Of a stretch of DNA of 64,000 bases, positions 36,308 to 47,250 are shown in pieces. The notes under the pieces were generated by a model that made no database searches, had not been told where the DNA came from, and saw only the letters and a list, made by a program, of their open reading frames with translations. Every line of letters begins with the position of its first letter. Position 1 is the first letter of the stretch. The stretch is taken from NCBI GenBank assembly GCA_024998755.1, contig JACEUU010000003.1, positions 310,001 to 374,000 on the forward strand. The letters run 5' to 3'. Both the position numbers and the translations under genes were made by a program. This DNA is from Vampirovibrio sp. GTDB lineage: Bacteria > Cyanobacteriota > Vampirovibrionia > Vampirovibrionales > JAJTHC01.

Positions 36308-37144
36308 TTGCAACCCCCGTATATAAACCCTCATCCCGATCTTGATTTCTTTACTTGTAGTCATTGTAAACAGATCAGTGAACCTAAACGTTTTATATTA
36401 CAAACTTTAACCGGTGAAGATCCTTCTGAATTTTTATCTAAGGCTTCAGCTAAAGAGTTTCAATTTGAATTTTGCAAAGAATCATCACCTGTAACTTTTG
36501 ATGTAGGTTCGCCCTATAATGATAATTCTTTTGATCCTTCCGATTTTCTGAACCCCTTATTAAATCGCTTAATGGCTCTGAAATGTAACATATGCAAACG
36601 TATACATTTATTTGCGGATAATACCCCCGCGAAAAACCTTGAAGCTGAAGCTGAACGTTATAAAGATCCTTCTTACGGATATCATGATGATGAACCACGA
36701 CCAACCTATCAATTATTGTACCCCATTTTATTTGAAGCACCCTTACCATCAGAAGAGATGCCCATAACTGTTAAAAAAATCTATAATGAAGCCCGATCGG
36801 TATTACCACACTCAACAAGTGCTAGTTGTTTGTTACTAAGAAGAGCATTAGAAACTTTATTGTGTCTAACGTTAAAAAAAGAAAAAGGCGAACTAAAAGA
36901 TTTAATACCAGCTTTCTTTAAAAAGCACAATCACTTAGAAGAGGCATTACAGGCTTCTTTCGAAGTAGTTCGCCTATACGGTAATACGGCTTGCCATAAC
37001 AACCCTAACGAACTACATTTAATGGATGATGAAGATAATGCACTTATGTTATGTGACTGTATAAACTTGATTGTCGATTCTGTCATTACTTACCAAAAAA
37101 GAGTAGAAGCATTATTAGCTCAACATCCCAAAGGTAACAAATAA
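36308..37144 (+). CDS. DUF4145-like protein (TTG start)
   Basis: C-terminal YNEARSVLPHSTSASCLLLRRALETLL...VVRLYGNTACHNNP resembles DUF4145/HEPN-like domains; N-terminal CSHCK and CNICK zinc-ribbon-like cysteines. Confidence 0.6.
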   Translation: MQPPYINPHPDLDFFTCSHCKQISEPKRFILQTLTGEDPSEFLSKASAKEFQFEFCKESSPVTFDVGSPYNDNSFDPSDFLNPLLNRLMALKCNICKRIHLFADNTPAKNLEAEAERYKDPSYGYHDDEPRPTYQLLYPILFEAPLPSEEMPITVKKIYNEARSVLPHSTSASCLLLRRALETLLCLTLKKEKGELKDLIPAFFKKHNHLEEALQASFEVVRLYGNTACHNNPNELHLMDDEDNALMLCDCINLIVDSVITYQKRVEALLAQHPKGNK

Positions 37145-42810: not shown

Positions 42811-44337
42811 ATGAAAAAACGACTTGTAGGCACTATTTTAACCAGTGTATTAGTGCTATTAGTGGGCATAATCACCCTAGTATTACCTGTAACCAACGCC
42901 AAAACACCGAACCCACAAACGACCGAAAACATACAAAAATCATTAGATAAATTAACCGAAAAAGAACTATTACCGCTAGCACAAGCAGGCAACGTAGAAG
43001 CCCAATTTTATTTAGGGCTAGTTTATTACGAAGGGAAAGGGATACCACACGAGTTCGTAAAAGCTCTTTATTGGTTTGGAAAATCCGCAGAACAAGGCAA
43101 TGCAAATGCTCAATGTTATTTAGGAGCGATGTATGAAAATAGTGTAGGTGTATCTCAAGATTATCAAAAAGCAGTATACTGGTATCAAAAATCTGCTGAA
43201 CAGGGTTTTGCAAATGCTTCGTATCAATTAGGCCAGATTTATCGCAACGGTGAAGGCGTACAAAAGGATTATCAAAAAGCTGTTTATTGGTTTGAAAAAT
43301 GGGCAGAACAAGGCGATGCAGAAGCTCAATTTAGACTAGGATATATGTACGCTGAAGGACAAGGTGTACCGCAAGATTATCAAAAAGCAGTATACTGGTA
43401 TCAAAAATCTGCTGAGCAAGGTTACCCATCGGCTCAATCTTTCTTAAGAAATATATACGAGGAAGGCAAGGGTGTACCGAAGGATTTAGAAAAAGCACTC
43501 TATTGGACTCAAAAATTAGCTGAACAAGGCGATAAATTCTCTCAATACTTGTTAGGGGATATGTATGAAGAAGGAAAAAGCGTACCACAAGATTACCAAA
43601 AAGCGGTTTATTGGTATCAGAAATCGGCGGAACAAGGTAGTGCAAATGCTCAATGTCTTTTAGGGATAATGTACGCTCAAGGGCAAGGTGTACCGCAAGA
43701 TTATCAAAAAGCCGTTTACTGGTGGCAAAAATCAGCAGAACAAGGGGATGTACTACCTGCAATAGCTCAACGTTTTTTAGGGATAATGTACACTAAAGGG
43801 CAAGGTGTTTCGCAGGATTATCAAAAAGCCGTTTACTGGTGGCAAAAAGCAGCAGAAAAAGGGGATGCAAAAGCTCAATGTCTTTTAGGAATGAGATACG
43901 CTGAAGGGCAAGGTGTTCCGCAGGATTATCAAAAAGCCCGTTACTGGTTTCAAAAAGCAGCAGAAAAAGGAGATAGAACAGCTCAATATAATCTAGGGGT
44001 GACATACTATGAAGCTCAAGTGGTACCGCAAGATTATCAAAAAGCGGTTTATTGGTATCAAAAAGCTGCTGAACAAGGGGATGCGTTAGCTCAATTGAAT
44101 TTAGGGTTAATGTACGCTAAAGGAAAAGGTGTACCGCAAGATTATCAACAGGCTTATGTATGGTTTAGCCTAGCATCTGCACAGGGATATGAAAATTCTT
44201 CTGAACTGAGGGATCTTCTTGCTAAAGAACTGCCCCCTGAACAATTAGCCGAAGCTCAAGAATGGGCTAGGGGTTGGAACGAAAAAATCCAAGCCAAAAC
44301 AACCCAAACTTCTGAACAACGCCAAAAAGGCTTATAA
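42811..44337 (+). CDS. Sel1-repeat protein with signal peptide (about 11 repeats)
   Basis: 36-aa repeats AQxxLGxMYxxGxGVPQDYQKAVYWYQKSAEQGDA after a signal/TM segment. Confidence 0.92.
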   Translation: MKKRLVGTILTSVLVLLVGIITLVLPVTNAKTPNPQTTENIQKSLDKLTEKELLPLAQAGNVEAQFYLGLVYYEGKGIPHEFVKALYWFGKSAEQGNANAQCYLGAMYENSVGVSQDYQKAVYWYQKSAEQGFANASYQLGQIYRNGEGVQKDYQKAVYWFEKWAEQGDAEAQFRLGYMYAEGQGVPQDYQKAVYWYQKSAEQGYPSAQSFLRNIYEEGKGVPKDLEKALYWTQKLAEQGDKFSQYLLGDMYEEGKSVPQDYQKAVYWYQKSAEQGSANAQCLLGIMYAQGQGVPQDYQKAVYWWQKSAEQGDVLPAIAQRFLGIMYTKGQGVSQDYQKAVYWWQKAAEKGDAKAQCLLGMRYAEGQGVPQDYQKARYWFQKAAEKGDRTAQYNLGVTYYEAQVVPQDYQKAVYWYQKAAEQGDALAQLNLGLMYAKGKGVPQDYQQAYVWFSLASAQGYENSSELRDLLAKELPPEQLAEAQEWARGWNEKIQAKTTQTSEQRQKGL

Positions 44338-44340
44338 CCC

Positions 44341-45096
44341 ATGAACCCAACCACACCGCTCACCCTCAGCATCAACGACCGATTAATTGTTGCATTAGAC
44401 CTACCCACCGTAGCGGAAAACCTAGCACTGGTGCAAGGTTTGCTACCACACGGGCTAACCCATGTAAAAGTAGGCATGTCGCTGTTTTACGAGGCAGGAC
44501 CTAGCATTATTAAACACCTCAAAACTCTTGGTTTGGCGGTATTTGTAGACCTAAAACTGCACGATATTCCCAATACGGTGGCTAGAACCGTAGAGGTTCT
44601 AATCCGCAATGGGGCTACTTTGTTGAATGTACACGCCCAAGGGGGCTTTGAAATGATGCAACAAGCCCAAGCCAAAAGCCTTGCTATGGCTGAAGAATTG
44701 GGGAATCCGCCTGCTAGTATTATTGCCGTTACCTTGCTGACGAGTTTTACCGCCGAAGCCCTGAAAACCGATTTACAACAGACCCAGTTAAGCCCTCAAC
44801 AGTATGTAGAGCATTTGGCGAAACGCACGCAGGAAGCGGGTTTGGCGGGTGTCGTCTGTTCCGCACAAGAAGCAGGGTTGATTGAAAAAGCCTGCGGGGC
44901 GGATTTTCTAAAAATAACCCCCGGTATTCGGTTAGCGGATGATACCGAACGCCAAGATGACCAAGCCCGTGTATTGACGCCTGTTTCGGCGTTACGGCAA
45001 GGGGCAACCCACTTGGTGGTGGGGCGTCCGATTTATGGGAGTGCATCACCAGCCGAAGCATTTGAACGCGTATTAGCCGAAATGAAAACCGCCTAA
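44341..45096 (+). CDS. pyrF: Orotidine 5'-phosphate decarboxylase
   Basis: LIVALDLPTV, VFVDLKLHDIPNTVARTV, LKITPGIRL, LVVGRPIYGS. Confidence 0.95.
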   Translation: MNPTTPLTLSINDRLIVALDLPTVAENLALVQGLLPHGLTHVKVGMSLFYEAGPSIIKHLKTLGLAVFVDLKLHDIPNTVARTVEVLIRNGATLLNVHAQGGFEMMQQAQAKSLAMAEELGNPPASIIAVTLLTSFTAEALKTDLQQTQLSPQQYVEHLAKRTQEAGLAGVVCSAQEAGLIEKACGADFLKITPGIRLADDTERQDDQARVLTPVSALRQGATHLVVGRPIYGSASPAEAFERVLAEMKTA

Positions 45097-45154
45097 AGTT
45101 GATTGTTTGCCAGTTATTCAAGTGCCACTTGAAATAAAGGTAAGCATTCAAGTT
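45096..45154. repeat. CTTGATTGTTTG-family repeat, short unit (locus 2)
   Basis: GTTGATTGTTTGCCAGTTATTCAAGTGCCACTTGAAATAAAGGTAAGCATTCAAGTT. Confidence 0.8.
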
Positions 45155-45242
45155 TGACAGATTGTAGCTAGATAGCGAAGTGGTGTAAAGGCTTTATTTT
45201 AGGTGGTTTACAGGGGTTTTATTGCCGTTTTTTAACGATGTA

Positions 45243-45331
45243 AACTTGATTGTTTACCAGTTATTCAAGTACCACTTGATTTTAAGGAATTCTTTCAAGT
45301 AACACTTGAAAAACGGGCAGAAATTCAAGTT
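45243..45331. repeat. CTTGATTGTTTG-family repeat, long unit (locus 2)
   Basis: AACTTGATTGTTTACCAGTTATTCAAGTACCACTTGATTTTAAGGAATTCTTTCAAGTAACACTTGAAAAACGGGCAGAAATTCAAGTT. Confidence 0.85.
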
Positions 45332-45456
45332 CAAACCCCATTTTTTGAGAGAACTACTAATTGTTAATAAATAGTTAGAATACTATTATTTTTAGATAGT
45401 TATGTTAAAATAAGCACATAGCTTTTTTCAAAGCTTGTTCTTTGAAAACCTCATTT

Positions 45457-45697
45457 ACCCCGTGATTTTAAGCGTTAGCAATAACGTTTCGCTGTTCTTC
45501 TAGCCCTACCCTAAGACTTCTAAGTCATATAGGAAGGTCAGAGGTTCTGGGAAGCCCCAAAGCATACTAAGGATGCTTATGGTATCTTTTGAATCCTAGA
45601 TGATAAGTTGTACCAAAATTATAAAAAACACAAAATTTTATATTTTCTAAGAGTCGGAAATCTATTAAAAACTTACGAGACGAAAAGACTTACGGGG
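45457..45697 (+). ncRNA. Candidate retron msr-msd ncRNA
   Basis: Possible a1/a2 pairing CCCCGTGATTTT (45458-45469) with AAAAGACTTACGGGG (45683-45697); AGC branch context after a1; stem-loops CGTTA-GCAA-TAACG, CCTA..GACTT-CT-AAGTC..TAGG, AAGCAT-N7-ATGCTT; AT-rich hairpin 45615-45646; RT gene downstream. Confidence 0.5.
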
Positions 45698-45745
45698 AAT
45701 TGGCTTCTTTTTTTACTCTAACAAGGGAAGAAAAGAAGCCGATTG
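45698..45745 (+). other. Strong hairpin between candidate msr-msd and the small ORF (could alternatively be the msd stem)
   Basis: AATTGGCTTCTTTT ... AAAAGAAGCCGATT, 14-bp stem with one G-T pair. Confidence 0.6.
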
Positions 45746-45787
45746 GTCGATTCGGTTGATACAAACTTTTAGAAAGCATTTCCAATT

Positions 45788-45991
45788 ATGGTTTTATTTT
45801 TAAAAAGTCTATCTAGAAAGCTGTGTAAGTCCTTTTCTCTAGCAAAACTGTATTTCTTAAAAGGATGGTCAAACGTCCCCAAAGAAGTAAAGATCCGCAT
45901 CTTCATTAAGATTGTTGATTTAGTAGGCGAGTTAGCAGCAAAACATATAGATTTCCCCTTCTCTTATTTTAATAGAACAAGAATAGCCTGA
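45788..45991 (+). CDS. Small ORF (67 aa) overlapping the RT start; candidate retron accessory/effector
   Basis: MVLFLKSLSRKLCKSFSLAKLYFLKGWSNVPKEVKIRIFIKIVDLVGELAAKHIDFPFSYFNRTRIA; stop and RT start overlap as TGATG. Confidence 0.55.
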   Translation: MVLFLKSLSRKLCKSFSLAKLYFLKGWSNVPKEVKIRIFIKIVDLVGELAAKHIDFPFSYFNRTRIA

Positions 45992-46851
45992 TGAAACTAC
46001 TAAACAGAAAATCTAAACATTTTTTATCTGATTGGATGGGTAGTAAGGTGTGGGACATACACCCAAATGCACCCTGTTTTTATAAGCCAATTCAACTAGG
46101 GAAAAGACCTATTGTAATAGTCAATTACCCTTATCTGAAGAATTGTCAAAAAAACATTTTAAAAGTTTTGCAAAATGAATTTCCGCCAGATTATTTGCAT
46201 TCCCCAGCAAAAGGCAAAAGCAACATAACCAACGCTACTGTACATAGGTTTAGCAAAGATCTTTGGACGCTTGATATCAGTTCATTCTTTTCAAATGTTA
46301 CAGAAACTAAAGTCTTTGGATTTTTCTATAATTATTTTAAGCTATCACCCGAAATAGCTACTGCACTTACTAATCTTACAACTTACCCTTGCTTTAAAGC
46401 AAAACAGACCGAAAAAGTTCTTCCGCAAGGTACTTGTACTTCTCCATATTTAGCATTTTGGTGTAATAAGCAAATGTTCGATTTTATTGATACGCTTTGT
46501 AAAGAACAAAACTGTATTTTTACTTTATATGTGGATGATATAACCATTTCAGGCGAAAAAGTACCTAAAACGTTAATTCATAAAATCAGATCAATACTTA
46601 ATAAAAATGGGTATAGGTTAGGTGAACGCAAAGATAAAAATGGTGAAGAAATAGGATTAAGAAAAATCAGACGCTACGGACAAGATAAAGATAAATCCGT
46701 TACAGGTGTCATTATCAAAAAAAATGGTGAAATGATTGCAATTCCTAAAGTTTATCAAAAACTTAAAAAATCAAAAAAAGAGGGTGAAATAAATAGAGTA
46801 AAAGGGACTCGAAATTATTTGAGCCAAATTAATAAAGCGGTGAGCCGTTAA
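45991..46851 (+). CDS. Retron-type reverse transcriptase
   Basis: NATVH (region X NAxxH), WTLDISSFFSNV, LPQGTCTSPYLA, LYVDDITISG catalytic box, VTGVIIKKNG (region Y VTG). Confidence 0.88.
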   Translation: MKLLNRKSKHFLSDWMGSKVWDIHPNAPCFYKPIQLGKRPIVIVNYPYLKNCQKNILKVLQNEFPPDYLHSPAKGKSNITNATVHRFSKDLWTLDISSFFSNVTETKVFGFFYNYFKLSPEIATALTNLTTYPCFKAKQTEKVLPQGTCTSPYLAFWCNKQMFDFIDTLCKEQNCIFTLYVDDITISGEKVPKTLIHKIRSILNKNGYRLGERKDKNGEEIGLRKIRRYGQDKDKSVTGVIIKKNGEMIAIPKVYQKLKKSKKEGEINRVKGTRNYLSQINKAVSR

Positions 46852-46895: not shown

Positions 46896-47250
46896 GAATG
46901 GGGGGCTCACGAGCCCGCCTGAAAGGCGAGCGAGCCCCCCCGCCGTTGCCAGATGCGAAGCATCGGCAACGGCAAGCCATAGCAGGGAATCGGGGATTGG
47001 TAGGGTACGTCCCAACCAAGATTTTAAACCCAACCTAAAATGGCTAGCTTCAAACCATACCCAGTTGGCAATAGGCTGGTGCGAGCGTAGCGAAGCAGAG
47101 CAATTAGGGAGCCTCTAGCTTCCGCTCAAGCCTATTGCCAACGTGAGTAGGAACAAATCAACCCTTGAGAGGGGTTTTTTAAGGGGGCGTGGAGCCCCCT
47201 TGAATTTGCGGGGGGTGTCGGGGGGCTGCCAAACAGCAGTCCCCTGACAA
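46896..47250. repeat. Hairpin-rich, GC-rich intergenic region downstream of the RT
   Basis: GGGGGGCTC...GAGCCCCCC enclosing CGCCT-GAA-AGGCG; GCCGTTGCC-a-GATGC-GAA-GCATC-GGCAACGGC; GTTGGCAATAGGCT (47064-47077)/AGCCTATTGCCAAC (47129-47142); AAGGGGGC-GTGGA-GCCCCCTT. Confidence 0.75.

What the first reader, a model, noticed from the sequence alone, without database searches (positions are those of the whole stretch)
45360..46851. Compact retron: structured RNA, 67-aa ORF and NAxxH/VTG reverse transcriptase
Seen: a 286-aa RT with NATVH, DISSFFSNV, LPQGTCTSP, YVDDITISG and VTGVII; a 67-aa ORF whose stop overlaps the RT start (TGATG); and about 400 nt of structured noncoding DNA upstream. Established: region X NAxxH and region Y VTG are retron RT hallmarks. 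No large effector (nuclease, HTH, TM or TIR protein) is adjacent: pyrF lies upstream and bioF downstream. If it is functional, the defence/effector part would be the 67-aa ORF or another unlinked gene, which would not match an effector arrangement I can name. YVDD replaces the more common YADD.
Basis: partly seen in the sequence, partly recalled or inferred. Interest (0 to 1): 0.88.

Follow-up and report, generated by a model that had tools for sequence, protein, structure and literature searches.

The report
Stripped-down type VI-like retron
A small bacterial anti-phage-type element (a retron) that consists only of a folded RNA, a 67-residue peptide gene and a reverse transcriptase; it is a far-off, slimmed-down relative of the poorly understood type VI retrons that lacks their DNA-binding regulator, and so is a handy natural test of which part does the work.

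Summary
The window holds an intact 286-aa retron RT (45991-46851), a probably coding 67-aa ORF whose stop overlaps the RT start, and about 400 nt of unusually structured upstream RNA (z about -3 to -3.5; lower than all 40 control pieces). PADLOC assigns the RT to type VI (205.7 bits; next type 112), and a tree puts it with type VI RTs, away from II-A, XI and XIII (100/99), on a very long branch. Nearly every type VI locus fetched has ncRNA - 37-80-aa basic/hydrophobic peptide - HTH_VI - RT. The 67-aa ORF sits where that peptide would be if HTH_VI were removed, but is not detectably homologous to it. HTH_VI is absent here, and so is a 17-nt palindrome (GTTCGCTnnnAGCGAAC) found upstream in most HTH-bearing loci. 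A similar HTH-less layout occurs in phage contigs (L190) and in L087. A covariance model of the type VI msr does not hit the window; a manual architecture match is suggestive (p about 0.01-0.02, post hoc). Best reading: a divergent HTH-less type VI-like retron whose small peptide is the likely effector (inferred). New variant of a known kind.

The parts
45361..45389 (+). promoter-like site TTGTTA-17-TATTAT, which would start a transcript near 45396
   Evidence: consensus scan; 9 of 12 matches, and the number of sites found is near the shuffled mean, so weak on its own
45390..45775 (+). putative retron ncRNA (msr-msd)
   Evidence: fold z -3.48, 0/100 shuffles; z -2.98, sense stronger than antisense, below all 40 control pieces. 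End-to-end closing helix 45389-45401 with 45764-45775 has pair probability up to 0.6 but is no better than shuffles (948/3000). No Rfam match at gathering threshold, only chance-level ones below it
45412..45448 (+). candidate msr double hairpin (45412-45424 and 45425-45448), followed by CATTTACCCCG
   Evidence: hand comparison with type VI msr. An 11/14 match after a hairpin of at least 7 bp: 22/1000 shuffles. The type VI covariance model does not hit here, and a stricter matrix scan picks another site
45458..45464 (+). CCCCGTG, predicted to pair with 45691-45697 (TACGGGG)
   Evidence: pair probability above 0.8; duplex -13.8 kcal/mol, 19/2000 shuffles as low; the same pairing next to a long hairpin is seen in type VI loci
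45698..45744 (+). 21-bp hairpin, candidate msd stem
   Evidence: inverted repeat I2; helix of 21 pairs at probability above 0.8; z -3.72 for 45690-45790
45788..45991 (+). 67-aa basic, helical small ORF; positional counterpart of the type VI small peptide; candidate effector
   Evidence: no family match of note; no significant similarity to the type VI small-peptide or HTH profiles; single-sequence AlphaFold2 model all-helical at low confidence, pLDDT 66
45991..46851 (+). retron reverse transcriptase, 286 aa, nearest to RT_VI
   Evidence: PADLOC RT_VI 2e-61; tree; Foldseek

Best explanation
A chromosomal, divergent retron nearest to type VI that has no HTH_VI gene. A promoter at about 45361-45389 drives one transcript. 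Its first ~380 nt fold as the msr-msd, which the RT copies in part into msDNA (the 21-bp hairpin at 45698-45744 is the likely msd stem). The rest encodes a 67-aa basic helical peptide and, translationally coupled to it, the RT. By analogy with other retrons, the RT-msDNA-RNA complex holds the peptide inactive, and phage infection that disturbs the complex frees it to stop the cell. Shown by computation: intact RT, its place near type VI, structured RNA, probable coding of the small ORF, absence of HTH_VI and of its presumed operator. Inferred: msDNA synthesis, the peptide being the effector, and any phage defence.
For: RT_VI 205.7 bits against 112 for the next type. Clade with type VI RTs against II-A, XI and XIII, 100/99. 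In the type VI loci fetched, a 37-80-aa basic/hydrophobic ORF lies upstream in 93 of 97 with enough upstream sequence (the ORFs were partly chosen for these traits), and 92 of 97 have HTH_VI between it and the RT. HTH-less relatives with a type VI msr and a small ORF directly before the RT exist: L188-L191 and L015, of which L190 has neither HTH nor TIR but an integrase downstream, and L087. 46 of 92 HTH-bearing loci carry GTTCGCTnnnAGCGAAC within 2 mismatches upstream, against 0 of 97 shuffles; the window, L015 and L087 do not. Window RNA z about -3 to -3.5. CCCC-stem plus long-hairpin architecture as in type VI. The 67-aa ORF (+9 net charge, 19% K/R, 52% hydrophobic) lies inside the range of type VI small peptides.
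Against: The 67-aa ORF has no significant sequence similarity to the type VI small peptides (1.4 bits; 459 of 1989 shuffles as high). The type VI msr model does not hit the window. The RT branch is very long (1.89) and its exact place is unsure (83/80). No homologue of the 67-aa ORF exists to test selection, and the locus is known from one genome. In the phage HTH-less group the small ORF varies relatively more by amino acid than the RT does (3 synonymous and 12 non-synonymous codons, against 66 and 28), so strong constraint on the peptide is not shown.
Confidence: 0.5

Rival explanations
1. A decaying retron: it lost HTH_VI (and perhaps its true small peptide) and now only keeps an RT and an ncRNA, with no working effector.
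For: Single genome, absent from the same-genus genome G001 and from other near relatives. HTH_VI and operator not there. Flanked by two genome-wide dispersed repeats. The 67-aa ORF is not recognisably homologous to anything.
Against: RT frame and all catalytic motifs intact and the model confident. The small ORF has coding-like codon usage and overlaps the RT start. HTH-less relatives are kept in at least two other lineages, one with 66 synonymous against 28 non-synonymous RT codon changes.
Confidence: 0.2
2. The 67-aa protein is an accessory of the RT (an RNA- or DNA-binding cofactor, or an RT subunit), and the effector is a gene elsewhere in the genome.
For: Basic and predicted helical; translationally coupled to the RT. 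Some type VI relatives carry extra TIR genes next to the RT, so effectors can be added or swapped.
Against: No candidate partner was found near the locus; the nearest defence-like hit, PD-T7-4, is 9 kb away. L190 keeps the small ORF and RT without a TIR.
Confidence: 0.2
3. The RT belongs to a separate retron type of its own (neither type VI nor a variant of it), with an unrelated ncRNA and an unrelated small effector.
For: Very long branch. The type VI msr model is negative. The small ORF is not homologous.
Against: RT_VI leads by 94 bits. Same gene order minus HTH_VI. Similar ncRNA architecture.
Confidence: 0.1

Closest known systems
Type VI retrons (Mestre et al. 2020 scheme; PADLOC RT_VI PDLC02952 and HTH_VI PDLC02926), e.g. 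phages P2_2H1, MuM16-1 and KS5
   Same: RT family (205.7 bits), compact operon, structured RNA upstream, small basic/hydrophobic ORF upstream, overlapping stop and start, no large effector as a rule
   Different: no HTH_VI; no GTTCGCTnnnAGCGAAC palindrome; type VI msr model negative; 67-aa ORF not detectably homologous; RT about 30% identical with two internal insertions
HTH-less type VI relatives L015 and L188-L191 (phage/prophage contigs) and L087 (gammaproteobacterial MAG)
   Same: small ORF directly before the RT, no HTH_VI; no palindrome (tested for L015 and L087)
   Different: their msr matches the type VI model (34-40 bits for L188-L191); some carry a TIR gene downstream; phage-borne in part; RT only distantly related
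gut-relative RT_VI-like retrons (L004, L027, L028, L031, L035)
   Same: best match RT_VI, same bacterial class, no HTH_VI
   Different: no comparable small ORF abutting the RT; several have an excisionase-like gene upstream and some an integrase-like gene downstream; separate clade

Membership tests
Retron (any type) | retron-clade RT with NAxxH and VTG motifs | tested here: met
Retron (any type) | structured ncRNA (msr-msd) directly upstream of the operon | tested here: inconclusive
   structure clearly above chance; a1/a2 helix not above shuffles; no Rfam match
Retron (any type) | production of msDNA | not testable with these tools
   needs nucleic-acid gel or sequencing
Type VI retron | RT assigned to RT_VI and in the type VI clade | tested here: met
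   2e-61; 100/99 against other types; exact place unsure
Type VI retron | HTH_VI gene directly upstream of the RT | tested here: not met
   no PADLOC HTH_VI match for the ORF; no hit near the locus in the own-genome search, only HTH hits elsewhere
Type VI retron | small auxiliary ORF upstream | tested here: inconclusive
   present by position and composition; no sequence homology
Type VI retron | type VI msr (double hairpin GGA..UCU; model R1 derived here) | tested here: inconclusive
   R1 negative, but also without a relevant hit in gut type VI loci that do have HTH_VI, such as L003 and L021-L025; architecture match p about 0.01
Group II intron, DGR, DRT and other RTs | closer to those RTs than to retron RTs | tested here: not met

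The most novel reading that the evidence does not exclude
A minimal retron in which a single 67-aa peptide, not related by sequence to any known effector, is the only effector, held by RT-msDNA without the HTH_VI regulator; by extension, the small peptide rather than HTH_VI is the effector of type VI retrons in general.
Probability: 0.35. Interest if true: 0.75.

Novelty: new variant of a known kind. Interest (0 to 1): 0.5.

Why it matters
Which component of type VI retrons acts as effector appears to be unreported: the open library searched here yielded no experimental study of a type VI retron (most subscription papers are not in it). Loci that lack HTH_VI, and with it the promoter palindrome, but keep small ORF and RT separate the two candidates by nature's own deletion: they suggest that HTH_VI is a regulator and the small peptide the output. 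That can be tested with a locus of about 1.5 kb. It would also be one of the smallest retrons, of interest for genome editing if it makes msDNA.

Tried and rejected
Rfam scans of the window: nothing. 67-aa ORF as a truncated HTH_VI (its C-terminus looked similar by eye): profile score -0.6, no better than shuffles. 67-aa ORF as a sequence homologue of the type VI small peptide: 1.4 bits, not significant. Type VI msr in the window by covariance model: negative; by motif plus hairpin: 22/1000 shuffles; by weight matrix plus double hairpin: a different site, 63/3000 shuffles and 15/286 control pieces as good; so kinship of the RNA is called suggestive only. a1/a2 flanking helix: no better than shuffles. 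The TTCAAGTnnCACTTGAA palindromes upstream as a retron operator: rejected, they belong to a dispersed repeat found all over the genome. Empty site in G001: pyrF has other neighbours there, so no clean comparison. Close homologues in viral contigs: none.

Full report
Observation. The window contains, on the + strand, a 67-aa ORF (45788-45991) whose TGA overlaps the ATG of a 286-aa RT (45991-46851). pyrF and a bioF-like aminotransferase flank the unit. It is predicted to fold with good confidence (mean pLDDT 83.6), and its nearest solved structures are retron RTs. The small ORF is probably coding: only 34 of 2000 shuffles give an ATG ORF that long, and codon usage favours its frame. The upstream 400 nt fold better than shuffles (z -3.48; -2.98), better on the sense than on the antisense strand, and better than each of 40 control pieces of the window; known type VI upstream regions measured in the same way gave -1.6 to -5.2.

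What the RT is. PADLOC gives RT_VI at 2e-61 (205.7 bits), with 112 bits for the next type; NCBIfam gives retron RTs below their cut-offs. A maximum-likelihood tree of 59 RTs separates type VI, a related group of gut RTs and the window RT from types II-A, XI and XIII with support 100/99. The window RT is on a long branch (1.89) and its place inside the clade is not firm (83/80). The RT is found only in its own genome: 382 genomes of its class gave only far relatives (39% identity at best), and the same-genus genome has none. Named relatives in what appears to be the same phylum are Cyanobacteriota such as Pseudanabaena and Nostoc; that the class is the non-photosynthetic Vampirovibrionia is my inference.

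Type VI anatomy. I collected type VI loci from phages, plasmids, genomes and viral contigs. PADLOC confirms HTH_VI in those tested. The order is constant: structured RNA, an ORF of mostly 45-80 aa with a basic N-terminal half and a hydrophobic or amphipathic C-terminal half, HTH_VI of about 103 aa, RT. A published note on phage MuM16-1 describes type VI in the same terms, RT with a DNA-binding gene and small auxiliary proteins (PMC8541194). The small peptides tested matched no Pfam or PADLOC family. Of 97 distinct loci with enough upstream sequence, 92 have HTH_VI.

Type VI RNA. About 120-280 nt upstream of the small ORF lies a double hairpin, hp1 - GUG - GGAAGG..CCUUCUAAC. In 49 sequences 89% of cells pair, 11 of 13 pairs show changes on both sides, and sliding the partners by one column destroys much of the pairing. 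The hairpins were picked by a pairing rule, so these counts lean towards the structure; the independent test is a covariance model built from them, which finds type VI loci left out of it (L077, L072, L013, L091, L049, L095, L128, L121; E 1e-10 to 3e-4) and loci fetched later (L188-L194). The segment after hp2 pairs with the segment just 5' of a long hairpin more strongly in matched than in permuted combinations (mean -12.1 against -9.5; the lowest of 200 permutations -10.4).

Type VI promoter. 46 of 92 HTH-bearing loci have GTTCGCTnnnAGCGAAC within two mismatches, mostly 280-380 nt before the small ORF; 0 of 97 shuffled upstream regions do. I take it to be the operator of HTH_VI; this is inference.

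The window compared. It lacks HTH_VI and the palindrome. The model R1 does not hit its RNA, but it also finds nothing relevant in gut type VI loci with HTH_VI, so a miss is not strong evidence. By hand, the window shows hairpins 45412-45424 and 45425-45448, then CATTTACCCCG as in P2-type phages, whose CCCCGTG pairs with the bases just before the 21-bp hairpin 45698-45744, as in type VI (-13.8 kcal/mol; 19/2000 shuffles as low). These tests were made after seeing the resemblance, and two other tests were not convincing; I call the ncRNA kinship suggestive. The 67-aa ORF matches the type VI small peptides in place, size, charge and composition, but not in sequence.

HTH-less relatives. Absence of HTH_VI is not unique. 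The L015/L188-L191 phage group has msr, a 75-aa ORF and RT; in L015 and L189 an intact TIR gene follows, in L188 it is broken up, and in L190, with an RT 91% identical, an integrase-like gene follows instead. L087 has a 60-aa ORF directly before the RT. L015 and L087 were tested for the palindrome and do not have it. So the unit 'RNA + small ORF + RT' recurs without HTH_VI.

Mechanism. Studied retrons hold an effector by the RT-msDNA complex and release it when a phage disturbs the complex (general knowledge; abstracts). With no other gene in the unit, the 67-aa peptide is the most economical effector. The steps msDNA synthesis, sequestration, trigger and toxicity are all inferred. Rivals are a decaying element, an RT cofactor with the effector in trans, and a separate retron type.

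Verdict. A real, probably functional, divergent retron nearest to type VI but failing one defining feature (HTH_VI); filed as a new variant of a known kind and not as a full type VI member. The interest lies in its use as a natural minimal case for the open question of the type VI effector.

Noticed in passing
window 45095-45331: A ~237-nt dispersed repeat with TTCAAGTnnCACTTGAA palindromes, 15 or more near full-length copies and over 50 matches in all in the genome; it ends about 60 nt before the retron RNA.
   Followed up: partly
window 47045-47250: Core of another dispersed repeat, about 40 copies in the genome, between the RT and bioF.
   Followed up: partly
window 36308-37141: 278-aa ORF (TTG start) matching the PADLOC anti-phage family PD-T7-4 (2e-28), about 9 kb upstream of the retron.
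   Followed up: no
window 42811-44337: 508-aa Sel1-repeat protein with internally repetitive DNA.
   Followed up: no
L009, L010 (Pseudosulfitobacter and Microvirga plasmids): Type VI retrons with a TIR gene directly downstream; the L009 TIR matches Thoeris ThsB at 5e-133. Possible added effector.
   Followed up: partly
L004, L028, L031, L035, L164: RT_VI-like retrons in gut relatives; L004, L028, L035 and L164 have an excisionase-like HTH gene upstream, L004 and L031 integrase-like genes downstream, suggesting retrons riding on integrative elements.
   Followed up: partly
type VI promoters, e.g. L010, L067, L069, L085, L092, L101: Perfect 17-nt palindrome GTTCGCTnnnAGCGAAC about 230-385 nt upstream of the small ORF in bacteria of different phyla; likely HTH_VI operator.
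   Followed up: yes
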